Below, piece after piece: positions 9,993 to 31,014 of a DNA stretch of 64,000 nucleotides. The stretch comes from Stenotrophomonas hibiscicola ATCC 19867. GTDB taxonomy: Bacteria; Pseudomonadota; Gammaproteobacteria; Xanthomonadales; Xanthomonadaceae. The translations under genes were made by a program, and so were the position numbers. The stretch lies in NCBI RefSeq assembly GCF_000382065.1, contig NZ_KB907499.1:109631-173630 (forward strand), in the 5' to 3' direction. Under the pieces are notes generated by a model. That model saw nothing but the letters and a program-made list of their open reading frames with translations, ran no database searches and was not told the DNA's origin. The stretch's first letter is position 1; every line of letters starts with the position of its first letter.

Positions 9993-9997
9993 CGGGG

Positions 9998-10696: not shown

Positions 10697-10698
10697 CC

Positions 10699-15792: not shown

Positions 15793-16041
15793 CAAGGGCA
15801 GGGCTCATGGTTCGTGGATGGCTGGATAGCCCAGTGATTCATCCGTATCCATCAATGGTGAAGCAAAATCGTGCATCCGCCTACCAGTGTGTGCGTGTGA
15901 AGCGTGTTTCTGTCCAAGCTGAATTCTTCATGTAACGACCAGGTCGAACACTTGCAGTTTTCGCGAAGAGTACATCTGCGCTGCACATCAGCTCGACAGG
16001 TCATTGCCTAGGGTGGGTCCACTTCCCTGAGCGACCGCCCC
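15793..16041. other. Divergent promoter region upstream of bphP
   Basis: This 249-bp non-coding gap separates the bphP start from a rightward hypothetical gene. It is more A+T-rich than its surroundings, as expected for promoters, but I see no convincing operator. One GGGCAGGG octamer lies at 15796-15803 (see the KOPS entries). Confidence 0.4.
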
Positions 16042-16335
16042 GTGAATCTGCAGACCGTGCCCTTGCCCCCGTATCGCATGCTGCCTGACAGCTGCCAGTT
16101 CGAACTGCTGGATGTGGATGCGCTGCAGGACCCTGCCAGTGGCCGGTTGCTGCATCTGTACTCGCTGGTGGCCCGTTGCCTGTCCTGCGAGACGATCTTC
16201 AAGGCAGAGGAAGGGCAGGGCCTGGTCAGCCATACTGCGGCGCGGGTGGTGCGATGCCCCACTGGCTGCGCACAGCAGGCCTTCAAGCCGGCCCTGCTGC
16301 GGAGCTGGCACCGGCAGGCCGCGGCCCAGGCGTGA
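16042..16335 (+). CDS. Small hypothetical protein with Cys pairs
   Basis: This protein of up to 97 residues contains CLSC (about 46-49) and a later CPTGC, a spacing that could bind zinc (ARCLSCETIFKAEEG ... VVRCPTGCAQQ). I recognise no named family. The GTG at 16042 has no clear Shine-Dalgarno; the ATG at 16078 (MLPDSCQFELLDV) is an equally good start. It ends 10 bp before the convergent TspO stop. A related-looking Cys-pair protein occurs at 38361. Confidence 0.55.
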   Translation: MNLQTVPLPPYRMLPDSCQFELLDVDALQDPASGRLLHLYSLVARCLSCETIFKAEEGQGLVSHTAARVVRCPTGCAQQAFKPALLRSWHRQAAAQA

Positions 16336-16345
16336 CCGGCAGAGG

Positions 16346-16831
16346 TCACAGCAGCCCGGGATTGGCTCGCCATACCGCGAAGTTGAGCGCTGAAGCGAAC
16401 GAGATCCAGGCCAGATAGGGAAGCAGTAGCGCCGCCGCAATCGGACGGACGCGCGCAAACGCGACGGTTGTTGCGCATACCAGCGCAATCAATACAAGAA
16501 TGTCGGCGAAGGCCAAGGCGCCCAGCTTCCAGCCGAAGAACAGCCAGCTCCACAGCGCATTGACGGCAAGCTGCACCAGGTAGAGCATCAGCGCCGGTCG
16601 TGCTCCACGCCAGCCGCGTTCGCGCCAGACCAGCCAGGCGGCAATGGCCATCATGGCGTAGAGCAAGGTCCACACCGGACCGAAGACACTGGCCGGTGGT
16701 GCCCACGGGGGAAGGGCGAGGGTGGTGTAGAAGCTTGCCGCGGATGCCGACGCCCACGCCCCCAGAGTGGCCGCGATGAAGGTGATCGCCATCCATCCCA
16801 GAAGCCCGAAAACCTGTGAACTCCGCTTCAT
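16346..16831 (-). CDS. tspO: TspO/MBR family tryptophan-rich sensory protein
   Basis: This 161-residue protein has five hydrophobic helices and the family signatures LALPPWAPPASVFGPVWTLL and VNALWSWLFFGWKLG, then LPYLAWISFASALNF. Bacterial TspO proteins bind porphyrins and in Rhodobacter modulate light- and oxygen-dependent gene expression. ATG at 16831 chosen because GGAG lies 9 nt upstream; in-frame codons to 16882 have no such site. Proximity to the bacteriophytochrome operon (about 500 bp away) fits a light or tetrapyrrole role. Confidence 0.92.
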   Translation of the reverse strand: MKRSSQVFGLLGWMAITFIAATLGAWASASAASFYTTLALPPWAPPASVFGPVWTLLYAMMAIAAWLVWRERGWRGARPALMLYLVQLAVNALWSWLFFGWKLGALAFADILVLIALVCATTVAFARVRPIAAALLLPYLAWISFASALNFAVWRANPGLL

Positions 16832-16903
16832 ACCGTGCAGCTCCATGATGCGCTTGATTGCGTCTACGCACTGAGGCCGCAAATGGATGCAGGCCGCCAG
16901 CCT

Positions 16904-19099
16904 TCAGTCCGATGAACCTGCGGCGCCCGTCCCCTGGCTCGCTGGCAGCAGGGAAGGCCGCTGATCAAACCACTCGCGTGCCTTGGCCAGGTGCCACTGG
17001 CGCTGGTCACCGTCCAGCTCGATGCCCGCACCCAGCAGCCCCCAGCGCAGATACAGGTCCCCGCGCTTGCGCTGGTCGAGCAGATCCAGCCGCGCGCGTA
17101 CCGACAGGCGATCGTTCTCGGCCTGCAGTCCATCGATGACCAGATGGCCTGGGCGCCAGCGCAGCGTTGCCTGTGCCTGTACCTGTCCGGAATCCAGCAG
17201 CGACAAGGTCCAGCGCGGGTAGTCGGTGCGCTCTGCGAACAGTGCAAGCAACGGACGGGCGTCGCTGAGATCCAGATCCGTGGTGGCGTCGACCTGGAAG
17301 GGCGACTGCGCATCGATGCGGCCACGCTTGAAGGCCACGCGGCCCTTCCATGCACTTGGGCGCTCTGTACCGGCCACCTGCACATTGCGCAGCTCCACGG
17401 TGGTGCCGGAGAGATCGAAATGACGTTCATCGAAGTCACCGCGGCGCAGGGTCGCGTTCACGCCGATATCGCCGCCCATTTCCAGTCCCGCCACCTTGGC
17501 ACTGGCGTTGCGCGCAAACAGCCGGGCCGTGCCATGACCGACGCGTCCATCGGTGTCGAGCGTGGCATCGCCGCTCAGGCTGCCGGTGCCTTGAAGCAGC
17601 CGCACCTGCGGCGAGCCGAGGTAGCGGTTGTAGGCCGTCAGATCAGGGATGGTGGCTTCACTGAAGCGCAGCTGCGCGCGTACCCCTTTGCGCAACTCCT
17701 GCAGGCGGCCATCGCCGGCCAGGTCCAGGGCCAGGTCACGGCCGTCGAACAGGCGCACGCCCTTGGCATCGGTTGGCTGCGCAGTGAATCGTGGCAGTCG
17801 GACAGCCAGCTGTGCCTGGCTGGGGCTGCCGGCCTTCAATACGCCATGGGCACTGGCCGTGCCCGCCAAGCGGACGCCGGCGACCTCGGCCACGGCCGCG
17901 GCCGCCGGGATGTCCACGGTGCTGCCTTCGATCAGTTCGCCGTTGCGCAGGCGCAGATCGGCTTTCAGCGTGCCGCCTCCGTCCAGCTGCAGCCACGGCT
18001 TGCGGACGAACAGGGCAGGGATCCAGTTGAGCGAAGTGAACGTCCATTCGCCGCGCACGGTACCAGAGCTGCGCTCCAGCAGCTGGGCAGGCTGCTGGAA
18101 GGGGATGTCCCGGCCACGGACGTGCAGTTCGGCATCCACTTCGCTGCCTGAGCCGGGTTTGGGCGGCAGGCGGGCCTGCAGGCGCAGGTCGTTGGCCACA
18201 TTGAGCTGCAGGGCCAGCACGCCGCGGTCGGGGGCGCCGTCACCCAGGTAGAGCGGCACCTGCCAGATTGCGCGGTCCCCGGGCTGCAGCTGGCCGTCGA
18301 TCAGGTGCAGCGCCAGTTGCAGGCGTCCGGGTATGGGCGCGCTGGAGATCTTCGGCGTTGTGGCATCCGTGTCCATGCGCACGCCCTGGCTGCGGGCGTC
18401 GACCTCGAGCTGGGCATGCAGCAGCTTCAGCTTGGCCAGACCAGGCGCCTGGTCCCGATAGTGGCGCGGATAGCTGAAGCGTGCGCTGAGATTCATGTCA
18501 CCCAGCAACTGCACACCGTCATAGCTGGTGTCCGCGTCGGCGAACGCAACTTCGGACTCGAAGAGCTCCGAAGGCCCGCCGCGTAGCTGCTTGAGGAAGC
18601 CCACCGTGCCGTGGCCCTTGCCGATGATCAGCAGCTTGCCAAAGCGTGCGCTGCGGATGCTGTCGCTGTGGATGGCGTCGAAACGCAGGGTCCAGCCGCG
18701 GTCACTGCGCGGCGGTGGCGGGATGGCTTCTTCGACGCGGCTGATCTCGGCGGAAACCCCCGTCGCCTGCAAGCGCGGAACCCGCACCTCGCGCTGGAAC
18801 AGGGGCAGCACCGCCAACCGGGCGCTGGCGCGCTCGGCATGCAGCGCGTAGACCGTGTGGTTCACGTGGCCGCGCATGTGCACGTTCCAGGCGATGACAT
18901 GGCCGGGCAGCAGCGTGATGGCCGGGCCGGTGGTCATCACGAACTTGTGCGGCTTGCGGTTGGTGACCTGATCGAACAACGGGGTATTGAGGAAGATGTT
19001 GCCGGCCAGCAGGTACAGCAGGTAGACGCCCAGCAGGACGTAGGCAGGAACGCGCCACCGTCGAAGCCGGTGCGGGATGTGCACGGAAACAGGAGGCAT
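16904..19099 (-). CDS. AsmA-like / translocation-domain membrane-anchored protein
   Basis: This 731-residue protein has one N-terminal membrane anchor (VPAYVLLGVYLLYLLAGNIF, about 17-36). It is followed by a very long stretch of beta-rich periplasmic sequence in which segments such as GTASAHGVLKAG and GTGSLSGDATLDTDGRVG recur, the look of AsmA/DUF748-type proteins. Such proteins are linked to lipid transfer or outer-membrane homeostasis between the two membranes. No enzymatic motif. Same strand as tspO, 72 bp upstream of it, and divergent from the acetyltransferase. Confidence 0.7.
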   Translation of the reverse strand: MPPVSVHIPHRLRRWRVPAYVLLGVYLLYLLAGNIFLNTPLFDQVTNRKPHKFVMTTGPAITLLPGHVIAWNVHMRGHVNHTVYALHAERASARLAVLPLFQREVRVPRLQATGVSAEISRVEEAIPPPPRSDRGWTLRFDAIHSDSIRSARFGKLLIIGKGHGTVGFLKQLRGGPSELFESEVAFADADTSYDGVQLLGDMNLSARFSYPRHYRDQAPGLAKLKLLHAQLEVDARSQGVRMDTDATTPKISSAPIPGRLQLALHLIDGQLQPGDRAIWQVPLYLGDGAPDRGVLALQLNVANDLRLQARLPPKPGSGSEVDAELHVRGRDIPFQQPAQLLERSSGTVRGEWTFTSLNWIPALFVRKPWLQLDGGGTLKADLRLRNGELIEGSTVDIPAAAAVAEVAGVRLAGTASAHGVLKAGSPSQAQLAVRLPRFTAQPTDAKGVRLFDGRDLALDLAGDGRLQELRKGVRAQLRFSEATIPDLTAYNRYLGSPQVRLLQGTGSLSGDATLDTDGRVGHGTARLFARNASAKVAGLEMGGDIGVNATLRRGDFDERHFDLSGTTVELRNVQVAGTERPSAWKGRVAFKRGRIDAQSPFQVDATTDLDLSDARPLLALFAERTDYPRWTLSLLDSGQVQAQATLRWRPGHLVIDGLQAENDRLSVRARLDLLDQRKRGDLYLRWGLLGAGIELDGDQRQWHLAKAREWFDQRPSLLPASQGTGAAGSSD

Positions 19100-19231
19100 C
19101 TACTGCTCTGAGGGCCGGAATTCCCACAACTATTGCGGAACCGATGGCGGTGGCGCGTGAAGCGGCTACGGGGCGGAGGCTTGATTCTGGTAGTGTCCGG
19201 CCTGGTCACCAGCTCGGATACGTGGAGTCGC

Positions 19232-19711
19232 ATGGAAATTCGACCGGCCAGGGAAAGTGAGTTCAACGCCATGTGGGGCATGTTCAAGGCAGCGGTTGCG
19301 ACGTGGGATGCGCTGCCTTTTGGCGGTTCTTTCAAGGTCGAAACGTTTCGCGCGCATTGGCTCCTGCCGCAGACACCTTATGTGGCCGTTCTGCGGAGCC
19401 GTGTGGTGGGCATGTACAAGATGGGCCCGAACTACCCCGATCTGGGGGCGCATGTGGCCAGCGCCACGTATGTGGTGGATGCACCGGCACAAGGGCAAGG
19501 TGTGGGCCGGGCGCTGGTGGAGCACAGCCTGGAGCGGGCGAGGGCGGAAGGGTTCCTGGCCATGCAGTTCAATTACGTGGTCAGTACCAATGGCCCGGCC
19601 GTGGCGTTGTATCGGAAGCTGGGGTTTGCGGTAGTGGGGACGCTGCCACAGGCGTTCCGGCACCGGGAATTGGGGCTGGTGGACGTCTTTGTGATGCACC
19701 GGTTCCTGTAG
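19232..19711 (+). CDS. GNAT family N-acetyltransferase
   Basis: This 159-residue protein shows the acetyl-CoA binding motif A (VVDAPAQGQGVGRALVEHSL, about residues 87-106, Q-x-x-G-x-G/A) and motif B (VSTNGPAVALYRKLGFAVVG). The acceptor substrate is unknown; small-molecule or protein N-acetylation are both possible. The ATG at 19232 matches the normal GNAT start (MEIRPARESEF); an open frame back to 19133 has no support. It stands alone, divergent from the AsmA-like gene. Confidence 0.88.
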   Translation: MEIRPARESEFNAMWGMFKAAVATWDALPFGGSFKVETFRAHWLLPQTPYVAVLRSRVVGMYKMGPNYPDLGAHVASATYVVDAPAQGQGVGRALVEHSLERARAEGFLAMQFNYVVSTNGPAVALYRKLGFAVVGTLPQAFRHRELGLVDVFVMHRFL

Positions 19712-19835
19712 CGGGAACAGGGCGGCGTCACAAAAAAGTGCGGTTGGCGTGGCCAACGTGGCGCGCTGAGATTCAAGGCTCCCGCTGACGCCGGCATCAC
19801 GCCAGCTGCATCAATAATTCGGCCCTTCGCGACAC

Positions 19836-19854
19836 TCGCTGGCAGCGCCAGCGA
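19836..19854. promoter_or_regulatory. Perfect 8-bp inverted repeat upstream of alkylsulfatase
   Basis: TCGCTGGC-AGC-GCCAGCGA lies 71 bp before the sulfatase start and 124 bp after the acetyltransferase stop. It could be an operator for the sulfatase operon or, less likely because there is no T tract, a terminator of the acetyltransferase gene. Confidence 0.4.
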
Positions 19855-19924
19855 CTTCCGATGTAGGTCGCTCCCTTCATCGAAAGCTCATCACTCGGCC
19901 AACGTCAATCGAAGGAACGCAAAG

Positions 19925-21940
19925 ATGAACAACGGCGCGCGCATGCCTCGTGGATGTGTCCTGGGCATCCTGATGGCTTCCACGCTGCTCGACTCCGGCA
20001 CTGCACTGGGTTCCAGTACCGGCACTTCGCAGCGCCCCCCGCCTGCAAGCGCGAGCAGGGCTACCGAAGACATCAACCGTCGTGTGCTCTCCCAGCTCGA
20101 TTTCAGTGATCGTGCAGACTTCGATTCGGCCAATCGCGGATTGATCGCGCCGTTTGACGGGATCATCCGTGGCGACAAGGGGCAAGTCATATGGGACATG
20201 CACTCCTACGCATTCCTGCAGGATGAAACATCACCGGCTACCGTGAACCCCAGCCTGTGGCGGCAGGAGCGCCTGAACCGCATAGCAGGACTCTTCAAGG
20301 TGACCGACCACGTGTACCAGGTGCGCGGACTGGACCTGTCGAACATGACCATTATTGAGACAGCCAAAGGCCTGGTCATCATCGACCCCCTTGTCTCGAC
20401 GGAGACGGCCAAGGCGGCGCTGGATCTCTATCGGGCCCATGTAGGGAAACTGCCCGTCAAGGCAGTGATCTACTCGCACTCCCATGTTGATCACTACGGG
20501 GGCGTGAAGGGAGTCGTCGACGAGCGTGACGTCCAGCGGGGAAGCGTGCGGATCTATGCGCCGGCAGGTTTCATGGAACATGCAGTTTCCGAGAACGTCT
20601 ATGCCGGCAATGCCATGACCCGTCGCGCGCAGTACATGTACGGCGCGCTGCTGCCCAAGGGGGCTCAAGGCCAGGTGGGTGCAGGCTTGGGCAAAACGAC
20701 CTCGCGCGGTACTGTAAGCCTGATCGCGCCAACCGATATCATCGGCTCCACCGGGCAGGCGGTGGAAAGCGTGACGATTGATGGCCTGCAGCTCGAGTTC
20801 CAGCTGACGCCAGGCACGGAGGCGCCAGCGGAGATGAATATCTATGTGCCGCAGTATCGCGCCCTCGGCATCGCGGAAAACGCAACGAGAACCCAGCACA
20901 ACGTGCTGACCATTCGTGGCGCCCAGGTTCGGGATCCGAAAGTCTGGTCGGAGTATCTGGACCAGACCATCAGCCGCTATGCCGCCCGTTCGGATGTGGT
21001 GTTCGCGCAGCACCATTGGCCCACATGGGGCGGGGCGGAGATCACCACGTTCCTGTCCGACCAGCGGGACATGTACCGGTATATTCACGACCAGACATTG
21101 CGGCTGGCCAACCGCGGCATGACGCCACTGGAAATTGCCGACACCCTGAAAGAACTGCCCGAGCCGCTGGGAAAGCGCTGGTACAGCCGCGGGTACTACG
21201 GCACGCTTTCACACAATGTGAGAGCGGTCTACCAGCGCTATCTCGGCTACTACGACGGGAACCCTGCCAATCTGAATCCGCTGCCACCGTCGGACGTCGC
21301 GCGGCGCTACGTTGATTTCATGGGCGGCGAATCGGCATTACTTGAGAAGGCACGGCGTTCTTTTGACCAGGGTGATTATCGCTGGGTCGCTGAAGTAGCC
21401 AAGCACATCGTGTTCGCCAATCCGGATTCGCGCGAAGGACGCGCACTCCTGGCCGACGCATTGGAGCAGATGGGATACCAGAGCGAGGCGGGCACATGGC
21501 GCAACGCCATGTTGATGGGAGCACTTGAACTGCGCGATGGCGTACCGAAGGGCGGTGCTACCACCGCGTCACCTGACGTATTGAAGGCCATGACAGTCGG
21601 CATGCTGTTCGACTACCTCGCCATACGCCTGGACGGGCCTGCGGCTGCAAGGGCAGGGAACGCCAGCATTGCCTGGATCATTCCCGAATCCAAGGAACGC
21701 TACTTGGTGACGCTGCGGTCGGGCGCGCTCTCCTATCGGCCCCTCGCTGACCAGGACCAGGCAGATGCGACCGTGGAGCTTCCCCGGAGCACACTCAACC
21801 AGCTTGTCATGGGCGCACAGCCGGCGCGCGAGCTGCTGGCCGGGCCGGCCGTGAAGCTGCGTGGCAAGCGATCCGCAGTCGAGAGCCTGTTCGCGAACGT
21901 GGAAACGTTCGATGTCATGTTCAACATCGTGACCCCATGA
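19925..21940 (+). CDS. Secreted alkyl/aryl-sulfatase, metallo-beta-lactamase fold (SdsA1-like)
   Basis: This 671-residue protein has a probable signal peptide (CVLGILMASTLLDSGTALGS) and the zinc-binding motif HSHVDH at 185-190, followed by downstream metal ligands. The C-terminal part (FDYLAIRLDGPAAARAGNAS onward) matches the SCP2-like domain of alkylsulfatases that binds the alkyl chain. These enzymes hydrolyse primary alkyl sulfates such as dodecyl sulfate in the periplasm, releasing alcohol and sulfate. AAGGA is 8 nt before the ATG. It overlaps the next gene by 4 nt. Confidence 0.92.
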   Translation: MNNGARMPRGCVLGILMASTLLDSGTALGSSTGTSQRPPPASASRATEDINRRVLSQLDFSDRADFDSANRGLIAPFDGIIRGDKGQVIWDMHSYAFLQDETSPATVNPSLWRQERLNRIAGLFKVTDHVYQVRGLDLSNMTIIETAKGLVIIDPLVSTETAKAALDLYRAHVGKLPVKAVIYSHSHVDHYGGVKGVVDERDVQRGSVRIYAPAGFMEHAVSENVYAGNAMTRRAQYMYGALLPKGAQGQVGAGLGKTTSRGTVSLIAPTDIIGSTGQAVESVTIDGLQLEFQLTPGTEAPAEMNIYVPQYRALGIAENATRTQHNVLTIRGAQVRDPKVWSEYLDQTISRYAARSDVVFAQHHWPTWGGAEITTFLSDQRDMYRYIHDQTLRLANRGMTPLEIADTLKELPEPLGKRWYSRGYYGTLSHNVRAVYQRYLGYYDGNPANLNPLPPSDVARRYVDFMGGESALLEKARRSFDQGDYRWVAEVAKHIVFANPDSREGRALLADALEQMGYQSEAGTWRNAMLMGALELRDGVPKGGATTASPDVLKAMTVGMLFDYLAIRLDGPAAARAGNASIAWIIPESKERYLVTLRSGALSYRPLADQDQADATVELPRSTLNQLVMGAQPARELLAGPAVKLRGKRSAVESLFANVETFDVMFNIVTP

Positions 21941-22839
21941 ACTCCTACCTCCGTCCTCTGGCCACATTTGCCGTTGCGCTTGCGGCATTCGGGATGAATG
22001 CCGATGCGCGCGCCGATGGAGCGCGCGATTGGGAGAACGTGCCAGTAGATACCAACCTGCTGTTCGTCTACTACACGTATGCGCGCAACGAAATCGCGTT
22101 CGACCCCTCGCTTCCGGTCGATGGCGCCCGGATTGAATCCCAGCTGGGAATCATTCGCTATGCGCGCACCTTCGCTCTGGGCGACCGCATCGCGGGCATC
22201 CAGGTCTTGGCACCCTATGGCAAGGTAACCGGCGGTATCGGTGGCACACCGCTACGCACATCCGCCTCCGGTATGGGCGATGCCACCGGGATCTTCCTGG
22301 TCAACGTGTTCGGGGCGCCTGCGCTCACGCCGCAGGAATTCCGGGACTGGGAAGCGGGCGCCTACCTGACCGCGTCCGTGGGCGTGACCGCGCCCACGGG
22401 CAGCTATGCCCGGGATTCCATCCTGAATCTGGGGAAAAACCGCTGGTCCTACAAGCCTCAGTTGGCCTATGGGTTGCCTCTGGCTGAAGGGACACTGCTG
22501 GCCATCAACGGCAACGTTCAATTCTATGGTGATGCGGAAAGGCCAGGAGAGGCTGCGTTGGAGCAGAAGCCGCTCTACGGATTGGATCTGCATCTGAGCA
22601 AAGATGTGGGTGAGCGGGTCTGGCTGTCGATGGATGCCAATTACGCGTACGGCGGCAGGAGCGGCTCCGGCGGCGTATGGAAAGACAACGGCCAGCGGAC
22701 CTTGAAGATGGGCGTGAGCGGCAATTACGCGTTTTCACCTCGAGTCGGGTTGAGCGTATCGGCCAATCGCACCGTTCTGAGGCGGGATGTCACACCAGCA
22801 GCGACGACTGTGTCGGTCAACTGCAGCTTTGTGTTCTGA
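21937..22839 (+). CDS. Outer-membrane protein, MetA-pathway-of-phenol-degradation family
   Basis: This 300-residue protein has a signal peptide (to about ADARA), alternating beta-strand segments and a terminal Phe (VNCSFVF), all expected of an outer-membrane beta barrel. The segments ASVGVTAPTGSY and NRWSYKPQLAYG are typical of the PF13557-type family found next to catabolic genes, where they are thought to pass hydrophobic substrates. The ATGA overlap with the sulfatase stop makes a two-gene operon, so alkyl sulfate or alcohol uptake is the likely job (inference). Confidence 0.85.
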   Translation: MNSYLRPLATFAVALAAFGMNADARADGARDWENVPVDTNLLFVYYTYARNEIAFDPSLPVDGARIESQLGIIRYARTFALGDRIAGIQVLAPYGKVTGGIGGTPLRTSASGMGDATGIFLVNVFGAPALTPQEFRDWEAGAYLTASVGVTAPTGSYARDSILNLGKNRWSYKPQLAYGLPLAEGTLLAINGNVQFYGDAERPGEAALEQKPLYGLDLHLSKDVGERVWLSMDANYAYGGRSGSGGVWKDNGQRTLKMGVSGNYAFSPRVGLSVSANRTVLRRDVTPAATTVSVNCSFVF

Positions 22840-23224: not shown

Positions 23225-23252
23225 TCTGAACATAATATACATTATGCGAAAT
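23225..23252 (-). other. dif: XerCD recombination site dif (28 bp)
   Basis: The core AACATAATATACATTATGCG (23229-23248) is exactly the reverse complement of the E. coli dif core. Read on the - strand, the XerC arm is ATTTCGCATAA (23252-23242), the centre TGTATA and the XerD arm TTATGTTCAGA (23235-23225). The gammaproteobacterial consensus ends TTATGTTAAAT, so I count 25 of 28 matches, all mismatches in the last four bases of the XerD arm. KOPS-type octamers point to it from both sides. The altered outer arm could mean a hybrid att site left by a filamentous phage. Confidence 0.85.
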
Positions 23253-23366
23253 GTCTTATCGGCCTTGGCACGATTCGTCGGCTCCGAGTGGCAATGGCTG
23301 GGCCCTGGCTCGGCTCTTGCCTGCGCCCTCAGTCCCCGGTCAAGGATGAGATCGCGGCATGATTGA
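23244..23366 (+). CDS. Possible 40-residue ORF starting inside dif
   Basis: The ATG lies in the XerC arm of dif and the frame reads MRNVLSALARFVGSEWQWLG with further basic residues before TGA. There is no Shine-Dalgarno and no recognised family. Reading frames that open in the attachment site are common where phages integrate at dif, so this is most likely element-derived sequence and probably not an expressed gene. Confidence 0.2.
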   Translation: MRNVLSALARFVGSEWQWLGPGSALACALSPRSRMRSRHD

Positions 23367-23535
23367 GTTTGACCCCGCGCCACCGTATCGACTTGACCGG
23401 CCCTTGGGCCGGTTTTTCTTTCCTCGGTGATCGTCTGATCACGCCCGAAGGCCGCGAGCTGCTTCCCGAAGATCTGGCCTAGCTGTCGCTCGCCGCCTGT
23501 CAGGCACAAGAGCGGCTTACTCCCTTACGCTCTCG
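23359..23535 (+). pseudogene. Decayed small phage-type gene (resembles DUF3653 proteins)
   Basis: An ATG at 23359 begins MIEFDPAPPYR. The continuing sense lies in another frame: RIDLTGPWAGFSFLGDRLIT, then PEGRELLPEDLA, then TAG, then LSLAACQAQERL. The pattern (W-x-G-F, L-I-T-P-E-G-R, P-E-D-L-A-W) is that of the small xanthomonad phage proteins annotated DUF3653, as I remember them. The frame change is explained if a tandem TATCG was lost, and the TAG stands where Trp is expected. The 3' end overlaps the ATPase stop. The family call is from memory. Confidence 0.4.
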
Positions 23536-25259
23536 ATGAGCATATGGCGAATGGTCCGATTCTCCAGCTTAGAAACAATGGGGCTACTGTCATCTACGTT
23601 TTCGTGAATGTGCATGCCCTCGTTGTAGATAATTCCCAGGAGGTAGATCGTGTCGTCAACGTCGACACCGTTCTCGACGGCAAAATCCAGCTTCTTCTTT
23701 GTCATGAACTTGTCGATGAAATCCGATTTCTGAGCCTGACCTTGGATCGCGTCATGGGCAATCTTCTCAATTCTGACACGAACAAAGCAGCAGACCGCAA
23801 ATGGATCATAGTTGTCCGATTCGTTGACGTACTTGTTCCACTCCGCTTCTGTGTAAGCATGAAATGCGCTCGAATCTCCCCAGGACTCCTTCAGGCCGAG
23901 AGCCTGGAACTGTGCCGTTACGTCAACCGGCGACGGATCATAGTGCAGATAGTGGCGACTAATGTCTTCTTTAATGGATGGATCTTCACGCTTTGCGATA
24001 AGGGCGCGAAAGTCCTTGTTGATGGTCGGCTTGGACTTCTTTAGGAAATAGATCTTCTGACTAGCGAACGTGAAGTTCTTAAAGTAGTAAGGATTCAGGT
24101 GCGTAAGAATCAATGGATACATGTTCCTTTGTTTCTCGCGAACCTTCTTGATAAGCCTGGTGATGTAGTACTGGACCGCTACGAGATTGGCGTCGTCCAG
24201 GTAGTCAAACACCTCGTCAATGACGAGGATGATGTCGCGCGACGAGATGGATCGCTCAATCTTCCTCAGCTCCGCCGCAAAGCACAGAGAGTCACGCTGG
24301 CCATTAGATATATGCAGGGCTGGCGGGAAAGAGACGACGAGACTCCCATTGCGCTCAGCAGGCCTGACCCTCTTCCATGTGGAACCGAACGCCTTGATGA
24401 TGTCGTCAAAGCTCTCCTTTTCGTTGACATACGAGAGATACCTGCACGCTTCCTTGAACGCCTTCTTGTTACCCAGGTAGGTCAGCGCCACTTGCAGGCC
24501 CGAGAGCAGAGCGTCGATACGGGCTTGGGCGGGGCCGGCGGCCATCGCCAAGAGATCAGCCAACGCCTTGACGGCGTCAATCGCTTCAAGGCGGAGCGCG
24601 AGGGCATCACTAGCCCATGCTCGTATTTCGTCGACGGTTCCGGCCTGAGCCTGAAGCAATGCAGTCACCTCTTCAATGTCCTTTTGAATGCGAACGCCCG
24701 TCATCTTGTCCATCACGCCATACAGATCAATCAAGCCGTCGGCTAGCGCTGGGTTCCCGAGTGTCTTGCTGAGGTTCTGGAAGGCCTTGCCGGATGGCCC
24801 AAAGCGAGTGCGCATCTCCATTACGTCGTAGGCGTGTTTTGCCTTGGCGGGAATCGTCTGGACCAGCACCAAGTCGCTGATATCCAGTGACGCTGTTGCG
24901 GTCGTGAACCTGCCTAAGTTGTGCTTGGTGACCTTCGCCCGAAGGCGGCTGGCGATCACATGGACATCAAAGGATGCCGCAATTCCGTTGCAGCCCCCAT
25001 CTGCAACGAGGGTGGAAATTTCGCCATTCTTCCTAATTGTGAGGGTCAGTTTTGGGGCGAGCGATTCATCTCCAAGGTGGATCTGATCTTTTGGAAGCTC
25101 TAACCTCTTGGTCTTGAGCGCGGCGAACGCCGCGGCAAGCGAGCTTTTGCCGAATCCATTTGGAGCGACAAGGAGTGACGGCTTGTTAGGAATAATGTCG
25201 AGTTGAAACGTGGAGTCCTTGATGCCCCTAATGTTCTCTATGGCTATAGATTTAATCAT
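23517..25259 (-). CDS. SMC/ABC-type AAA ATPase of dif-adjacent island
   Basis: This 580-residue protein starts MIKSIAIENIRGIKDSTFQL and has Walker A APNGFGKSS (about 32-40), an ABC-signature-like ISNGQRDSL and Walker B IILVIDEVFDYLDD, with a helical middle region. This is the RecF/OLD/SMC-like layout common in anti-phage systems. The C-terminal 150 residues show no nuclease motif that I recognise. Codon third positions are clearly richer in A/T than in flanking genes, which suggests transfer. No partner overlaps it; the next gene upstream is 319 bp away. Function in DNA repair or defence is inference. Confidence 0.8.
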   Translation of the reverse strand: MIKSIAIENIRGIKDSTFQLDIIPNKPSLLVAPNGFGKSSLAAAFAALKTKRLELPKDQIHLGDESLAPKLTLTIRKNGEISTLVADGGCNGIAASFDVHVIASRLRAKVTKHNLGRFTTATASLDISDLVLVQTIPAKAKHAYDVMEMRTRFGPSGKAFQNLSKTLGNPALADGLIDLYGVMDKMTGVRIQKDIEEVTALLQAQAGTVDEIRAWASDALALRLEAIDAVKALADLLAMAAGPAQARIDALLSGLQVALTYLGNKKAFKEACRYLSYVNEKESFDDIIKAFGSTWKRVRPAERNGSLVVSFPPALHISNGQRDSLCFAAELRKIERSISSRDIILVIDEVFDYLDDANLVAVQYYITRLIKKVREKQRNMYPLILTHLNPYYFKNFTFASQKIYFLKKSKPTINKDFRALIAKREDPSIKEDISRHYLHYDPSPVDVTAQFQALGLKESWGDSSAFHAYTEAEWNKYVNESDNYDPFAVCCFVRVRIEKIAHDAIQGQAQKSDFIDKFMTKKKLDFAVENGVDVDDTIYLLGIIYNEGMHIHENVDDSSPIVSKLENRTIRHMLIESVRE

Positions 25260-25578
25260 CGCCCCCTCTCTGTGAATGACGTAACCCTTCGGTCGAACTA
25301 TCGCGTGTCAGGCCTTCATTGCAACAAAAGATAGCCAGGACGCGCCGCCATAAATTCCTCAAGGGCGCGATAGGCGCTCATCCCCAAAACGCCGATCGCC
25401 TCGAGACCCCAGAGTGGCCTGTCTGCTACGGTTCGGCAGAGCCCCTTACCTGCCCCGATAGATATTGCTAACCCCCTGCCCGGCCAGGACTTCCCTGCCC
25501 AGCTAAGAGCCTATTGCCTTAAAGGTGCGTAAAGAAGAGATGCTGCGGAGCAATGGCTAGGTTCCGTGCCATTCGCCA
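25260..25578. other. Island intergenic region upstream of ATPase
   Basis: This 319-bp gap should hold the ATPase promoter. On the - strand, 25316-25507 reads as a 64-codon open frame without a start codon (for example DRPLWGLEAIGVLGMSAYRA, ending GYLLLQ), bounded upstream by TAG. It may be the 3' remnant of a lost gene. Two CCCTGCCC octamers lie at 25474 and 25493. Confidence 0.35.
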
Positions 25579-26175
25579 TCAACGAGCGAAGTGAGTCACG
25601 TAGTCTTGCCTCTTATCGTTCCACTCAAAGCCGATACTGGTGGCCGCAGACGATTCATCAGCAAATACGCTGAAGATGCATATAAGGTCTTCGATCAAGA
25701 ATTCGTAGGCCCACTTGTGCCGCATGTAGTCGGAGAAGACGAGCATGCCCTTGAATTCAGTGCCCTCTGACCATGTCTGCATCCAATAGTAGTGAATAAG
25801 CTGATTGCAAACGTCGAGAACGCCTAGGTCAACAGCCTCAGGGTTCGCAATATCAAATTGATCTTCCGGGAATCCTGCGCCTAAAAATGTGAATGGCTCG
25901 ATGCCGATCTTTTTGCAGCGAATTGCAGGTAGTCGAACGCTTCGAGCACAATCGTTGACCTTAGAGCGCTCAAGCAAGGAGCGGACCTGGAAGGCTACTA
26001 GCATTAGACGGCGTTCATACAGGACCAGCTGCTTCTCGGACCATCTTCGATAATTTCGATGCCGCTTAAGCCACAGCACTTCTGCGCGCAGCTCTTGCCG
26101 CCAACAAGTTGACTCGATCATCCGTTTGAGGCCTGAGGTAGTTCCAGCTAGATTGTCACCCATTGCAGAGTTCAT
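25579..26175 (-). CDS. Hypothetical island protein
   Basis: I do not recognise this 198-residue protein. It is rich in Trp and charged residues (WRQELRAEVLWLKRHRNYRR; LIHYYWMQTWSEG; FEWNDKRQDYVTHF), has no signal peptide or membrane segment, and no visible catalytic motif. Base composition is A/T-leaning like the ATPase, so it belongs to the same acquired segment. The ATG at 26175 follows an in-frame TTG; ATG at 26163 or 26121 are alternatives, and none has a clear Shine-Dalgarno. A role as partner of the ATPase is possible but unsupported. Confidence 0.6.
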   Translation of the reverse strand: MNSAMGDNLAGTTSGLKRMIESTCWRQELRAEVLWLKRHRNYRRWSEKQLVLYERRLMLVAFQVRSLLERSKVNDCARSVRLPAIRCKKIGIEPFTFLGAGFPEDQFDIANPEAVDLGVLDVCNQLIHYYWMQTWSEGTEFKGMLVFSDYMRHKWAYEFLIEDLICIFSVFADESSAATSIGFEWNDKRQDYVTHFAR

Positions 26176-26310
26176 CAACGGGAAATGCCATCAGTCAGTG
26201 GGGTCGTCGGCCAAGTGCGATCTCAAGCCTTGATTCTGGCCTATTCCCCGTACCAGCGCAGTCGGCTTGAAACAAGGAAATGATGTCTTCGACACTCCCA
26301 ATAAAATCCC

Positions 26311-27027
26311 TTATCGCGACTGAACTGATTTGGCAGGCAGAACGGATTTTTGCGCAATCTCCAGCCTACTCACGTTGTCCACTGGCACAAGAACTGCAGC
26401 CTTCTGGACCGGCTCCCAAAGCACATAGCTATCCCCCAAGCGCCCCACCAAGCTCAGATTGCGCTGGACCTTCTCATCAATAGTCACATTGACCGTGTAC
26501 TTGCTGCTGCCGGAAGTAATCGCCTTGGCGCGTTCGAAGCCAAGCCAGTTTGACGAGATCGGGACATAGACAATCATTACGAGCGCATAGGCCAGCCACG
26601 GCGAGTCCTTCACGGCGGCCGGCAACACTGGGGACAGGCGTACTGCCATTGCACATATACCCGTCAGCCCCACACCTATCAAAACGGGCCAGCCATTGGA
26701 CCACCAAATCAAAGCGCCCATTCCGACAATACAAAGAGCCAGGGTCAGCCACATCAGCAGGTTGGCTTGGGACGGACTCGCCGTCACTTTCCCTTCGACC
26801 CACCCTCCAAGCAGCAGCGCAATCAGTATGAAGAACAACACCATGCCGATCCCCGCAAGCCCTGCCAGCGCAAGCTCACTCACCGCAACAAACTGAAAGG
26901 GATCCAGGCCGAAGTGCCCCCAATACGCCTTCAAATAGAAGGCCCCTTGAATCAATCCGAACGTGACGAGCGCCGAACCCCATCCAGCAACATCGGCCAT
27001 CGTTAGCGTCTTCTGCGTACGTTCCAT
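26311..27027 (-). CDS. Multi-pass membrane protein of island
   Basis: This 238-residue protein has about six hydrophobic segments in the first 165 residues (FGLIQGAFYLKAYW; GIGMVLFFILIALLLGGW; LTLALCIVGMGALIWW) and a soluble C-terminal tail of about 75 residues (VNVTIDEKVQRNLSLVGRLG) predicted to be beta-rich. AAGGGG precedes the ATG at 27027; the open frame to 27117 would run over the 20-bp repeat. No family is recognised. Membrane effectors of this size occur in some defence systems, but nothing specific is visible here. Confidence 0.65.
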   Translation of the reverse strand: MERTQKTLTMADVAGWGSALVTFGLIQGAFYLKAYWGHFGLDPFQFVAVSELALAGLAGIGMVLFFILIALLLGGWVEGKVTASPSQANLLMWLTLALCIVGMGALIWWSNGWPVLIGVGLTGICAMAVRLSPVLPAAVKDSPWLAYALVMIVYVPISSNWLGFERAKAITSGSSKYTVNVTIDEKVQRNLSLVGRLGDSYVLWEPVQKAAVLVPVDNVSRLEIAQKSVLPAKSVQSR

Positions 27028-27098
27028 GTATCCCCTTCCATCGATGCAGCCCCGCCACATAGTGGCATGCAGCGCCCAGTCCTGCAGAATCCACCCCC

Positions 27099-27118
27099 CA
27101 TTAACGTGACGCGTCACG
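27099..27118 (+). repeat. 20-bp direct repeat, right copy (CATTAACGTGACGCGTCACG)
   Basis: This is the second copy of the repeat at 22886-22905. Here the inner 14 bp CGTGACGCGTCACG is a perfect palindrome. It lies between the divergent island membrane protein and the TPR protein gene, about 75 bp before the latter, so a regulatory role is also possible. Confidence 0.6.
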
Positions 27119-27194
27119 CCAAATCACCCCGCCCATTGGCGCCCCACCCCTCCCCCACTATAGTTCCACCCCTCACAAGGACGAGGCGGCGCAC

Positions 27195-27950
27195 ATGCCC
27201 TACATCGGAATCGGACTCCACGTACTGGCGGCCATCTACTTCGCGGTGCACGCCATTCGCTCAGGCCAGAGCCTCTACTGGCTCATCCTGCTCTTTTCGT
27301 TCCCGCTACTCGGCAGCGTCGTCTACTTCCTGGCGATCTACTTCCCTGAAGTCCGTCACTCACGCGGCGCCCGACAGGTCGTCCGTTCCGCCAAGCAGCT
27401 CATGGACCCGGGCCAGGACCTGCGCAACGCCCGTGCCGAACTGGCGCGCACGCCCACCGTGCAGAATCGGGTTCGCCTGGGCATGACGCTGCTGGATGCC
27501 GGCCAGGCCGAGGAAGCCAGGAGCCTGCTTGAACAGGCAGCCAGCTCGCCGCTGGGCGACGATGCCTACATCCTGACCGGCCTTGCCCGTGCCCGCCTCG
27601 AGTCCGGGCACGCTGCGCTTGCGGTGGAGACGCTGGACGGCCTCTTCGCACGCCACCCGGACGTGCGCCGCAAACCGGAACAGACCTTGCTGTACGCGCA
27701 GGCATTGGCAACCGCGCAAGCCCCCGGAGCCCGCGCCGCATTCGAGCGCGCGGTGGAGTGCGGAAACGATGCGGCCGCTCGCTGCCTCTACGCCGAATGG
27801 CTGATGGCGCAGCCGCAACCCGACGATCGCGAGCAGGCCCGCAGCCTGTTCGCCAGCATCATCGACGATGCCCAGCATTGGTCGCGCCACGCACGGAGCC
27901 ACAATGCCACATGGCTGGAGCGGACTAAGGCCGCGTTGAAGGGCTACTGA
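27195..27950 (+). CDS. Membrane-anchored tetratricopeptide-repeat protein
   Basis: This 251-residue protein has two N-terminal membrane segments with a phospholipase-D-nuclease-like N-terminal look (YIGIGLHVLAAIYFAVHAIR; LYWLILLFSFPLLGSVVYF). A helical region of TPR-type repeats follows (LGMTLLDAGQAEEARSLLEQ; ARLESGHAALAVETLDGLFA; PGARAAFERAVECGNDAAAR). It probably scaffolds other proteins at the inner membrane; no partner is identifiable. Base composition returns to the high G+C of the host, so it marks the right edge of the island. Confidence 0.75.
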   Translation: MPYIGIGLHVLAAIYFAVHAIRSGQSLYWLILLFSFPLLGSVVYFLAIYFPEVRHSRGARQVVRSAKQLMDPGQDLRNARAELARTPTVQNRVRLGMTLLDAGQAEEARSLLEQAASSPLGDDAYILTGLARARLESGHAALAVETLDGLFARHPDVRRKPEQTLLYAQALATAQAPGARAAFERAVECGNDAAARCLYAEWLMAQPQPDDREQARSLFASIIDDAQHWSRHARSHNATWLERTKAALKGY

Positions 27951-28196
27951 CGCCTGACGGCCTTTGGCAAACCTGTCGCATCCGCCTCGCTCACAGCCTC
28001 GCCGGGCGGATGCCGACAGTCGGCAGACTTGCACCACCGACATCGCCGATAGCATTGCAGCGCAAGGCTCCAGCTTCATTGCGCCATATGCAACGATTCT
28101 GAAAATGTTGAAAGTGGTGACGTCATCGGCCTTACTGCATTGGCATCGCACGCAACCGGGCGTATTCCTTTTCGCGCCGCCAATACATCGGTGGTC
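27951..28196. other. Non-coding gap before palindromic element
   Basis: A 9-bp inverted repeat (GCATCCGCC ... GGCGGATGC, near 27978-28013) with a long loop could form a weak terminator for the TPR gene. Nothing else is recognised in this stretch. Confidence 0.35.
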
Positions 28197-28350
28197 GGGG
28201 CTCGAAATCCCGGTAACGCGACTGTAGTTTGCGCTTGCCAGCCGGCACCACGCTTTGTGGTGCCGGCTGGCAATCCGTCGGCCGGCTATGGCGGGCGGTG
28301 CGTGGGGGCCTCGTGCCCACCGGGCCTAGTCGCGTACCGGATTTCGAGCC
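28197..28350. repeat. Imperfect palindromic repeat element with central hairpin
   Basis: The outer arms GGCTCGAAATCCCGGTAACG (28199-28218, continuing to GAC) and the right arm at 28329-28350 are inverted repeats differing by two single-base gaps. Between them a perfect hairpin with a 17-bp stem and 5-nt loop lies at 28235-28273 (stem beginning TTGCCAGCCGGCACCAC). This is the shape of a REP doublet or small MITE. No coding potential is evident and no transposase is nearby. Confidence 0.6.
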
Positions 28351-28359
28351 ACGCATCGT

Positions 28360-28381
28360 CCGCCACCTTTATCGGTGGCGG
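28360..28381 (+). other. Hairpin CCGCCACC-n6-GGTGGCGG before the next gene
   Basis: A perfect 8-bp stem with loop TTTATC ends 28 bp before the ATG at 28410. It may shape the leader of the downstream mRNA or be an outlying part of the palindromic element. Confidence 0.4.
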
Positions 28382-28409
28382 CTTCTGCATGCACGCAAGG
28401 AGCCCCGCC

Positions 28410-28766
28410 ATGACCCAGACCCACTCCCCTGCCCCGCACCCGATCCACGATGCGCCCGCCAACGGCCCCGCGTTGGACCCGAACACCCTCATCGCCCTGC
28501 TGCACAGCATCGGCTCAGGCGTCGCCTCCGATGGCCAGCCGTGGCCTGAACGCCATCAGATGCCCGGTCGACGCATCGCCTTGGCGGATACCGACTGCTC
28601 GCTGGCGGGCCTTCGGGTGGTGCTGGAGATCCTGCTGGCCGCGCAGCGCGCCCGCGAGAACGGCGAGCTGGAGCAATACGTTGGCCCGCGCGTGATGGAG
28701 GGGCTGATCATGGCCGGAATCGGCCTTACCGCACACGCCAGTACCCGACTGCATCCGGAGGGCTGA
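28410..28766 (+). CDS. Hypothetical protein (118 residues)
   Basis: The protein starts MTQTHSPAPHPIHDAPANGP after a good Shine-Dalgarno (AAGGAG, 7 nt). A disordered start is followed by a helical part with LDPNTLIALLHSIGSG, LVLEILLAAQRARENG-like sequence and LIMAGIGLTAHAS. No family is recognised; it looks like a xanthomonad-specific protein. The longer frame back to 28140 runs through the palindromic element and is not credible. TGA is followed at once by the GTG of the next gene. Confidence 0.6.
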   Translation: MTQTHSPAPHPIHDAPANGPALDPNTLIALLHSIGSGVASDGQPWPERHQMPGRRIALADTDCSLAGLRVVLEILLAAQRARENGELEQYVGPRVMEGLIMAGIGLTAHASTRLHPEG

Positions 28767-29237
28767 GTGGCGTGGTGCCGCTGGGCGGCCAACGCGCTCT
28801 GTCTTGTGGTGGTGGTTGCGGCACAGGCGCAGTGGCCGGCGCCGCCGGTGCCCTCGCCTGTCGCGTTCCAAAGCATCAACGATGATCGATTCTCACAACT
28901 GCGCCGCCAGGCGATGCAGTTCGTGGAGGCTCGGCCACCGCAGGGCTTCCAGTTCGTTGAGCGGCATCGGGATGCCGAGTTCCAGGTTCATTGCCGAGGC
29001 ATACCCGTGCTGTGGCTGGAGAGGCGCTCGCAACATCTGCTGTTGCAGGTCCCACTGGACGCGAAGCAGCGGGCACCCGCCGTTGTGCAGCTTGGTGCGT
29101 TGCTTCAATGGCAGTTGGAGCCGTTGGATTACCTGGAGCAGGTACTGGCTGGCGTGCCGGAGCCTGTTCTGTTGGATCGGGTGCTGCAGAGTCTTGCTGG
29201 TGATGTGCCTGATGGGGCGCGATGTGGCCTGCCGTAG
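28767..29237 (+). CDS. Possible secreted hypothetical protein
   Basis: The GTG directly abuts the preceding TGA, suggesting coupling. The first 22 residues (ANALCLVVVVAAQAQW) could be a signal peptide ending at AQA. The rest reads as a normal protein (FVERHRDAEFQVHCRGIPVL; LLLQVPLDAKQRAPAVVQLG; YLEQVLAGVPEPVLLDRVLQ). No family is recognised and codon choice is less biased than in neighbours. The antisense frame at 28876-29592 overlaps a better gene and was not used. Confidence 0.45.
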   Translation: MAWCRWAANALCLVVVVAAQAQWPAPPVPSPVAFQSINDDRFSQLRRQAMQFVEARPPQGFQFVERHRDAEFQVHCRGIPVLWLERRSQHLLLQVPLDAKQRAPAVVQLGALLQWQLEPLDYLEQVLAGVPEPVLLDRVLQSLAGDVPDGARCGLP

Positions 29238-29341
29238 TCGAGCATGGCTTCACTCTACAGGGCTGCGGGCAGCGAGGGTTCGGGCTGCGGTCCTGCCGCT
29301 CGTCACCTGCGCGACAGGCATTGGCCCAGTGATCATGCGAG

Positions 29342-29947
29342 TCACCTCCCGGCATCGATCCAGCCCGCATCGCGCACACGCGCAAGATCTTCTGGCGTAT
29401 CGATATCCAGGCCCAGTTCCGGTGCCTGCAGGACATGCACCGTATCGACGGGAAGTTGCCGCAGGCGCGCTCCAAAGCCGCGGTCACCGGTTGCACCCGC
29501 AGAGTTGAACCATGCACGCGGCACAACTGCAGGAATGCCAAGCGCGTCTCCATGACGGGTGCCGGCGCACCCCGACGCCGAGGCGCGGGCACCCGAAAGC
29601 AGCGCCTGCAGATGGGAGCGCTCGATTGCGGGCTGGTCGCATGCCACGACCATCACCGCAGTCACCGTGGGCAGCAGGTGTGCGCCGGCAACCTGCAGGC
29701 TGCTCGCCAGGCCGCGTTCCCAGTGGGGGTTGGTTACCGGAGTGGCGTCCAGCCCGGCAATACTGGATGTCACGGCCTGTGCGTTCGCGCCCACCACGAC
29801 CAGGACCTGCGCTGGCGCGAGCTCCCGCGCCAACCGCACCACGCGATGTACCAGGGTCTCGCCCTGCCGGGTCAGAAGCTGCTTGGGCTGGCCAAGTCGG
29901 GTGCTCCCGCCGGCAGCCAGCACGACGACCGTATGCGCGTCAGTCAC
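29342..29947 (-). CDS. MocA-like molybdenum cofactor nucleotidyltransferase
   Basis: This 201-residue protein has the NTP-transferase motif VVVLAAGGSTRLGQPKQLL at its N terminus and a second motif VMVVACDQPAIE. Members such as MocA add CMP to molybdopterin to make the cytosine dinucleotide cofactor used by xanthine-oxidase-family enzymes. GTG at 29947 overlaps the XdhC stop as GTGA; ATG at 29968 is an alternative. It is the last gene of the aldehyde oxidoreductase operon and supplies its cofactor. Confidence 0.88.
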   Translation of the reverse strand: MTDAHTVVVLAAGGSTRLGQPKQLLTRQGETLVHRVVRLARELAPAQVLVVVGANAQAVTSSIAGLDATPVTNPHWERGLASSLQVAGAHLLPTVTAVMVVACDQPAIERSHLQALLSGARASASGCAGTRHGDALGIPAVVPRAWFNSAGATGDRGFGARLRQLPVDTVHVLQAPELGLDIDTPEDLARVRDAGWIDAGR

Positions 29948-31005
29948 CTGCCGTGCGCGCTTCGCCATTGCTGCAGCTGCGCGGCGATGCTGAGCGAAAT
30001 CGCCTCGGGCCCTCGGCCGCCGATGTCCAGGCCGACCGGTGATCGAAGTCTCGGGGACAGGCAGTGGCGCTGATCCGGTGTCAGCAGCTTGAACAGGTCC
30101 TCGCGCCTTCGCCGCGGACCCAGCAGTCCAATGAACGCGACGTTGGTATCAGCCAGGGCCACCAGCGCCTCCCGGTCCAGTTCGAAATCGTGATGCATCA
30201 CCAGTACCGCGTCGCACGGGTCGCCATGAAGGGCCTCGGCCGGGCTGGTCTGAAGATGCACATCCGCGCACTGCCCGACTGAGGCCCAGCGCGCTCGCCG
30301 TTCGGCCACGCTGACCCGCCACCCCAGGCCCCGCAGCAACGGAACCAGGGAGGGCGTTTCGGGACCGCCCCCCAACACCAGGGCCCGCGGAAGCCGGGGC
30401 AACGGCAAATGCCATGCGCCCTCGCCAAAGGACTGCGCCCCGTCCATCGGATGCAGCTGCCATGCCTGCTCGCGATGGCCTGCACGGAAAATGACCTGCC
30501 CCGACGTGCGCAAGTCGCGCTGGAGTGACACGCCCTCGCGCAACCAAGCCTCGATCACGGCATCGATGCCGGTCATGGCACGCAACGGCAGAAGCGCAAT
30601 CCGAAGCCGGCCGCGGCACCCGAGCGCGGACCCACTCAACAGGTCGTCGTCACTGCGGGTATCGATCTCGATCCAGTCGACCTGCCCTGCCGCGCTCACC
30701 TGCTCCGCGCGTCGCGCGAGCTCCGGCTCCAGGCATCCGCCGCTCAGCCAGCCGACCTGGCTGCCGTTGCAGAACAGCACCATGTCGCCGGCACCGGCGT
30801 AGGTGGAGCCATCGGTTTCCAGCACCAGCGCGAGCACGGCGTGCTCCCCCGCGCGCACGCACGTCAAGGCCGTCTCGAGTACGCCGCGCGGGCTGCCTTC
30901 GGCGAGGAAGCCCGGCGCTGCGGACAGGTCCTCGGCAAGATCGCCGGGCTCCCCTCCGCCTGCCGCTGAAGCTTCCAGCGCGGGTGAGGCTGCGGGTCGG
31001 TCCAT
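29944..31005 (-). CDS. XdhC/CoxI-family molybdenum cofactor insertion protein (PaoD-like)
   Basis: This 353-residue protein has the XdhC signature in the N-terminal half (LALVLETDGSTYAGAGDMVL; VGWLSGGCLEPELA). The C-terminal half holds a Rossmann-like segment (ALVLGGGPETPSLVPLLRGL) and MHHDFELDREALVALAD. XdhC proteins bind and sulfurate the molybdenum cofactor and deliver it to the large subunit. ATG at 31005 chosen over an upstream TTG. It follows the large-subunit gene by 9 bp. Confidence 0.9.
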   Translation of the reverse strand: MDRPAASPALEASAAGGGEPGDLAEDLSAAPGFLAEGSPRGVLETALTCVRAGEHAVLALVLETDGSTYAGAGDMVLFCNGSQVGWLSGGCLEPELARRAEQVSAAGQVDWIEIDTRSDDDLLSGSALGCRGRLRIALLPLRAMTGIDAVIEAWLREGVSLQRDLRTSGQVIFRAGHREQAWQLHPMDGAQSFGEGAWHLPLPRLPRALVLGGGPETPSLVPLLRGLGWRVSVAERRARWASVGQCADVHLQTSPAEALHGDPCDAVLVMHHDFELDREALVALADTNVAFIGLLGPRRRREDLFKLLTPDQRHCLSPRLRSPVGLDIGGRGPEAISLSIAAQLQQWRSAHGR

Positions 31006-31014
31006 GCGCAAGGG

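What the first reader, a model, noticed from the sequence alone, without database searches (positions are those of the whole stretch)
23225..23252. A dif site: the window probably spans the chromosome terminus
Twenty central bases (AACATAATATACATTATGCG) are identical to the reverse complement of the E. coli dif core, and 25 of 28 positions match the gammaproteobacterial consensus as I recall it. All mismatches are in the last four bases of the XerD arm. This is either the host dif or the hybrid site left when a filamentous phage integrated at dif.
Basis: partly seen in the sequence, partly recalled or inferred. Interest (0 to 1): 0.85.

Follow-up and report, generated by a model that had tools for sequence, protein, structure and literature searches.

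The report
Chromosome terminus site beside phage remnant
This is the bacterium's own chromosome-separation site (dif), and the DNA on one side of it is a decayed 277-base scrap of a filamentous phage that once inserted there; the site itself is ordinary, but across the genus two mirror-image kinds of phage land on its opposite sides.

Summary
Confirmed. Window 23225-23252 (minus strand) is the host dif. Its 20-bp core is the only copy with 3 or fewer mismatches in the 4.42-Mb genome. Cumulative GC skew over 400 kb peaks 2.0 kb away, and GGGNAGGG octamers (FtsK-guiding, as recalled) switch strand in an interval that contains it. 83 of 91 genus genomes have a match within 2 mismatches.

The site is a hybrid all the same, on the other side. 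From the attP core outward on the XerC side, window 23235-23511 is a decayed end of an SMA9/PSH1-type filamentous phage; no zot gene was found in the genome.

Genus survey: 42 of 81 dif loci have such a phage end on the XerC side, 20 on the XerD side, 14 on both. Two attP types are mirror images: XerC arm plus core (SMA9, PSH1, phiLf) and XerD arm plus core (SMA6, SMA7, SHP2). The first fits the published TLCphi class. I saw no description of the second in the passages I read; Petrova 2014 was not available.

The parts
23225..23252 (-). dif site of the chromosome (28 bp)
23242..23252 (-). XerC-binding arm, ATTTCGCATAA; outer ATTT in 65 of 81 sites; may be phage-derived
23236..23241 (-). central region TGTATA, where strands are exchanged (inferred)
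   Evidence: arm layout from established knowledge of dif
23225..23235 (-). XerD-binding arm, TTATGTTCAGA; the outer four bases (CAGA) are poorly conserved in the genus; taken as host-derived
23235..23511 (+). Decayed end of an SMA9/PSH1-type filamentous phage: attP core, 3' end of ORF1 (regulator-like), 5' end of ORF2 (frameshifted, with a stop, cut off)
23517..25259 (-). 580-aa gene with a weak AAA_15-like ATPase match, GC 0.53, lying where the rest of the prophage would be; no match in the 90 other genus genomes
19925..22839 (+). XerD-side accessory block: alkyl sulfatase and Phenol_MetA_deg-like protein; shared with G061 and G053
2568..21651 (+). 8 GGGNAGGG (KOPS-type) octamers, all + strand octamers of the window, pointing to dif
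25474..60041 (-). 16 GGGNAGGG octamers, all - strand octamers of the window, pointing to dif

Best explanation
The site is the chromosomal dif of a Stenotrophomonas strain. XerC binds the right arm, XerD the left arm, and FtsK, steered by GGGNAGGG octamers from both sides, brings two dif copies together so that a dimeric chromosome is cut into two (inferred from the known system; the parts and polarity are shown here). In the past an SMA9/PSH1-like filamentous phage, whose attP carries the XerC arm and central region but a divergent XerD arm, integrated at dif through host XerCD. The result was a rebuilt dif made of the phage's XerC arm and core plus the host's XerD arm, with the phage's regulator end next to it. 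The rest of the phage was later lost and an unrelated ATPase-like gene now abuts the remnant (order and route of the loss are inferred).
For: Only copy of the 20-mer with 3 or fewer mismatches in 4.42 Mb. Over 400 kb of its contig (985 bases read N) the cumulative GC skew peaks at C2:134845 with dif at C2:132859; GGGNAGGG lies 29 on + / 1 on - to the left and 7 on + / 70 on - to the right; the best switch interval, 131281-135104, contains dif (99 of 107 concordant); its form GGGCAGGG is the most strand-skewed about dif of the 8-mers with 40 or more copies. The genome has XerD (351 bits), a second Xer recombinase and an FtsK gamma domain. A match within 2 mismatches in 83 of 91 genus genomes; in 23 of 28 single-contig genomes it lies at 0.45-0.55 of the record. 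Window 23274-23511 is 92.5% identical to phage SMA9 and 23273-23511 91.7% to PSH1; the local alignment begins at the attP core and ends at 23511. A profile of phage ends trained on 15 lysogens, not on the window, hits the window flank at 2e-58, with no hits in reversed sequence. On the XerD side the window matches G061 at 93.5% for 7.3 kb starting at the edge of dif, with no match on the XerC side. No Zot match in G000.
Against: No far junction (attL half-site) of the lost phage was found within 10 kb; a loose look gave only two inverted 2-mismatch matches, taken as chance. So the former prophage is inferred from one end only. The phage's XerC arm and core are identical to the host's, so the letters of the arm cannot show which copy is present. 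Skew was computed on 400 kb of one contig, not on the whole replicon. Eight of 107 octamers are discordant (7 + on the right, 1 - on the left), and the 7-mer GGGAGGG shows no clean switch in the window (+ 2 left and 2 right; - 0 left and 4 right). XerCD/FtsK function was not tested.
Confidence: 0.92

Rival explanations
1. Plain host dif with no phage history; the flank similarity is host DNA that phages picked up.
For: The 28-mer is conserved across the genus; 33 of 81 dif loci show no phage end on either side by these models.
Against: The flank is homologous to phage coding sequence (ORF1 end, ORF2 start), and ORF2 is broken here by a frameshift, a stop and a truncation. The same kind of end sits next to dif in loci with a far half-site, several with zot between.
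Confidence: 0.05
2. Hybrid through the XerD arm: an element brought the CAGA end of the XerD arm.
For: A class of phages does insert on the XerD side and replaces that arm (14 loci with far half-sites).
Against: The window's XerD flank has no phage end by the models and runs into accessory genes shared with G061 from the edge of dif. XerD-end bases are about as variable in the 61 loci without an XerD-side phage end as in the 20 with one.
Confidence: 0.06
3. A relic dif-like site of a mobile element; the working dif lies elsewhere.
For: Phages carry dif-like sites.
Against: Single copy in the genome, octamer and skew switch around it, present in 83 of 91 genus genomes.
Confidence: 0.01

Closest known systems
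dif of Xanthomonas campestris pv. campestris (PMC2731167)
   Same: 25 of 28 bases; same XerC arm and core; XerD end also not AAAT
   Different: XerD arm ends TCAGA in the window and CAGGA in X. campestris
Filamentous phages SMA9 and PSH1 of S. maltophilia
   Same: attP with XerC arm plus TGTATA core; regulator end about 92% identical to the window flank
   Different: Window keeps only 277 bp, with ORF2 broken
TLCphi / phiLf / Cf1c class of Xer-exploiting elements (Table 2 of PMC4246890)
   Same: attP with a dif-like XerC arm and core and a divergent XerD arm; a dif is rebuilt next to the prophage
   Different: TLCphi is a satellite phage of V. cholerae; its reaction order was not tested for SMA9-type phages here
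XacF1 of Xanthomonas citri (PMC4076744, passages)
   Same: attP core inside a regulator gene that integration splits; uses host dif and XerC/D
   Different: Complete integrated phage in that work; only a remnant here
SMA6, SMA7 and SHP2 of S. maltophilia
   Same: dif-core attP; related gene end beside it
   Different: Mirror attP: XerD arm and core kept, XerC arm divergent; not the kind found in the window

Membership tests
Chromosomal dif site | 28-bp site with two 11-bp arms and a 6-bp centre matching dif | tested here: met
Chromosomal dif site | Single copy on the chromosome | tested here: met
   (20-mer, 3 or fewer mismatches)
Chromosomal dif site | At the GC-skew turning point and KOPS convergence | tested here: met
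   400 kb of an 817-kb contig; whole replicon not tested
Chromosomal dif site | Host encodes XerC, XerD and FtsK | tested here: met
   the second Xer match (279.8 bits, under the XerD cut-off) is taken to be XerC, no XerC model was run
Chromosomal dif site | Resolves chromosome dimers | not testable with these tools
   needs a deletion or recombination assay
attR-type junction of a TLC-class filamentous phage | Phage attP-flanking DNA joined at the core to host DNA | tested here: met
attR-type junction of a TLC-class filamentous phage | Other junction (attL half-site) present | tested here: not met
   hence called a remnant, not a prophage
attR-type junction of a TLC-class filamentous phage | Phage morphogenesis gene (zot) in the genome | tested here: not met
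   G000 has none at E 0.001
attR-type junction of a TLC-class filamentous phage | XerD-first, FtsK-independent integration | not testable with these tools
   read for TLCphi in PMC4246890 section 9; not shown for SMA9 here

The most novel reading that the evidence does not exclude
In Stenotrophomonas the chromosomal dif is continually rebuilt from phage parts on both sides: one class of filamentous phage supplies the XerC arm and inserts on that side, and a mirror-image class (SMA6, SMA7, SHP2) supplies the XerD arm, with a divergent XerC arm, and inserts on the other. Both carry a related regulator-gene end next to the kept arm, as if the near-palindromic core had flipped within one phage lineage. 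The mirror class would be a fourth attP type beside the CTXphi, VGJphi and TLCphi types and should need a different order of strand exchange. The window's dif is one product of the first class.
Probability: 0.45. Interest if true: 0.6.

Novelty: new member of a known kind. Interest (0 to 1): 0.4.

Why it matters
It fixes the terminus of this replicon and shows that an apparently plain dif carries a readable phage scar. The genus survey shows that the outer end of the XerD arm is hardly conserved in nature and that phages use either arm of dif as their landing half, which makes the role of each arm and the order of strand exchange testable with natural sites.

Tried and rejected
XerD-end mismatches as proof of a hybrid: rejected. 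The outer tetramer has 54 different forms among 81 sites, though its first base is A or C in 80 of 81, and it is about as variable with as without an XerD-side phage end.

A second dif-like site in the window: none at 17 or more of 28 apart from the site itself. Half-sites in the 20 kb around it: no relic; two inverted 2-mismatch matches, at +2030 and -1953 from dif, taken as chance. The first half-site scan of the 81 loci (13 or more of 18) was noisy: 35 hits against 18 in reversed sequence. I therefore rest on longer patterns: 17-mer with up to 1 mismatch, 15 hits, all direct and on the XerC side; exact 12-mer, 14 hits, all direct and on the XerD side; none in reversed sequence. The shorter patterns also gave hits that fit neither class (L040, L043, L056, L080, L090, L094, L098 and a second one in L107).

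Naming the 580-aa ATPase-like gene as a defence gene: only weak, partial PADLOC, Pfam and NCBIfam matches, none in phages or PDB, so left unnamed. Far flanks as occupied/empty pairs: for 13 type-D loci (L045, found later, not tested), 4 continue colinearly into another locus's XerD flank for over 450 bp at 90% or more (L051, L069, L084, L104; best L051 against L034, 96% over 502 bp); for L084 and L104 the partners themselves have phage ends, which points to tandem insertion. Three more (L060, L082, L106) align weakly or briefly and 6 of 13 have no colinear partner. For the 15 type-C loci the best alignments run only 60-289 bp, in L102 528 bp, so they show repeated insertion rather than clean pairs.

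Literature: seven searches found no paper on the attP of SMA6 or SMA7; Petrova 2014 was seen only as a reference in PMC8228603.

Full report
WHAT IS THERE. The 20-mer is at 23229-23248 and is an exact dif core on the minus strand. The full site, ATTTCGCATAATGTATATTATGTTCAGA, is 25 of 28 to the ATTT...AAAT form, 22 of 28 to E. coli dif (recalled) and 25 of 28 to the X. campestris dif printed in PMC2731167 (passages seen; comparison). None of 100 shuffles of the window gave a match at up to 3 mismatches. The genome (G000, 13 contigs, 4.42 Mb) has one copy of the 20-mer at up to 3 mismatches.

IT IS THE HOST DIF. Within the window, all 8 plus-strand GGGNAGGG octamers lie left of the site and all 16 minus-strand ones right of it; the 7-mer GGGAGGG, also tried, shows no clean switch (+ 2 left, 2 right; - 0 left, 4 right). 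Over 400 kb of contig C2 the octamer counts are 29 + / 1 - on the left and 7 + / 70 - on the right; the best switch interval (131281-135104) contains the site at 132859, and the cumulative GC skew peaks at 134845. The octamer is the E. coli KOPS as I recall it; its form GGGCAGGG is also the most strand-skewed about the site of the 8-mers with 40 or more copies. The genome encodes XerD, a second Xer recombinase (taken as XerC) and an FtsK gamma domain. In the genus, 83 of 91 genomes have a match with up to 2 mismatches, one each except G033 and G061, which have a second, inverted one. In the family, a looser pattern matched 257 of 345 genomes. In 23 of 28 single-contig genus genomes the site lies at 0.45-0.55 of the record, as expected if records start at the origin; the others are at 0.04, 0.36, 0.41, 0.91 and 0.99 (start points not checked). 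Genus identity rests on G032 (same genus), whose contig length and dif flanks equal those of S. maltophilia MDMC339, and on the phage hits.

THE XERD END IS POORLY CONSERVED. I took 80 dif loci from other genomes (of 82 with a match; G036 and G054 not fetched) plus the window. The XerC outer four bases are ATTT in 65 of 81; the XerD outer four have 54 forms, with 0.9, 0.3, 0.2 and 0.0 bits per position; the first of them is A or C in 80 of 81. This is so whether or not a phage end lies on that side.

THE XERC SIDE IS A PHAGE REMNANT. A search of 50,697 phage records with window 23253-25300 matched 16 records (10 Stenotrophomonas, 6 Xanthomonas, some of them duplicates), covering at most 12% of the query; 23274-23511 is 92.5% identical to SMA9, and PSH1 is 91.7%. 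A local alignment starts at the attP core (window 23235 for SMA9, 23236 for PSH1) and stops at 23511; on the XerD side the phage diverges. In SMA9 the attP lies at codon 114 of ORF1, which looks like a helix-turn-helix regulator (my reading). In the window the ORF1 end and the ORF2 start are both present, but ORF2 is frameshifted, holds a stop and is cut off after about 50 codons. Six bases on, at 23517, an unrelated gene with a weak ATPase match ends (GC 0.53 against 0.65 for the window). No zot match in the genome and no far half-site. Against G061 the window aligns at 93.5% from the edge of dif along the XerD side for 7.3 kb and not at all on the XerC side, which places the change of ancestry at dif.

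THE GENUS PICTURE. Half-sites reveal prophages of two kinds. ATTTCGCATAATGTATA (up to 1 mismatch) recurs in 15 loci, each time in direct orientation 6.4-8.6 kb out on the XerC side; TGTATATTATGT (exact) recurs in 14 loci, each time direct and 5.9-7.7 kb out on the XerD side; reversed sequence gave none of either. L063 and L104 have both. An earlier, looser scan was half noise (35 hits against 18 in reversed sequence). Of 37 zot matches in 33 genomes, 32 lie on the contig of dif and 31 of these within 10 kb; 16 are on the XerC side, all in one orientation, and 15 on the XerD side, all in the other; one is 52 kb away (G032) and five are not on a contig with dif. Profiles of the two kinds of phage end, trained on 15 and 13 of those loci, find an end next to dif (E under 0.001, some of them weak) on the XerC side in 42 of 81 loci (15 training) and on the XerD side in 20 (13 training); 14 have both and 33 none; reversed sequence gave no hits. 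The window, not in training, is among the 42 (2e-58). The two kinds of end match each other in inverted orientation. Some type-D far flanks continue into another genome's dif flank, as insertion predicts: L051 against L034, 96% over 502 bp; 4 of 13 tested do so for over 450 bp at 90% or more, 3 weakly or briefly, 6 not at all.

PUBLISHED PHAGES FALL INTO THE SAME TWO KINDS. Of seven records scanned, SMA9, PSH1, phiLF and Xv2 keep the XerC arm (10 or 11 of 11) and core, while SMA6, SMA7 and SHP2 keep the core and XerD arm with 3-5 of 11 XerC-arm matches. PMC4246890 (abstract, passages and section 9 seen) describes TLCphi attP as XerC arm and core near-identical to dif with a degenerate XerD arm, integrated XerD-first without FtsK, and its Table 2 lists phiLf and Cf1c with it. 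The first kind fits that class. The second is its mirror; it does not fit the three classes as far as I read. The passages shown of PMC5357621, PMC3025954, PMC7062461, PMC4471427 and PMC7307601 speak of divergent XerD arms or do not compare arms. The paper most likely to have described the mirror kind (Petrova 2014) was not available, so I make no claim of priority. [quoted passage not shown]

LIMITS. Function of the site, the parent phage of the remnant, and the order of events that put the ATPase-like gene where the rest of the prophage would be are inferred. Some loci are cut by contig ends, so counts of far half-sites are lower bounds.

Noticed in passing
window 23517-25259 (-): 580-aa gene with weak AAA_15/RecF-like matches, low GC, in 1 of 91 genus genomes (this one); weak partial matches to defence ATPases (mad8, mad3, AbiLi, AriA, PtuA).
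   Followed up: partly
L060, L085, L106 (G033, G061, G086), about 890 bp from dif on the XerC side: A shared stretch of about 850 bp, 94-98% identical, of unclear coding content, bounded by a complete inverted dif-like site with a different centre (CGTATC or CGCATC); may be a small Xer-mobilised element.
   Followed up: partly
L037 and L109 (G007, G089), 1.55-1.6 kb from dif on the XerC side: A different stretch (95% identical between the two) bounded by a similar inverted dif-like site (centres CGTAGC and CGCAGC).
   Followed up: partly
L056 and L098, 0.95-1.1 kb from dif on the XerD side: A direct partial site ATTTCGCATAATGTGCTCACTGCG, perhaps a further small element.
   Followed up: no
window 19925-22839 (+): Alkyl sulfatase and outer-membrane-like gene pair on the XerD side of dif; sequence shared with many genomes resumes near window 19710; the block is shared with G061 and G053 only among the 80 loci at E 1e-8.
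   Followed up: partly
G000 contig C2:91140: The FtsK gamma domain match lies only about 42 kb from dif.
   Followed up: no
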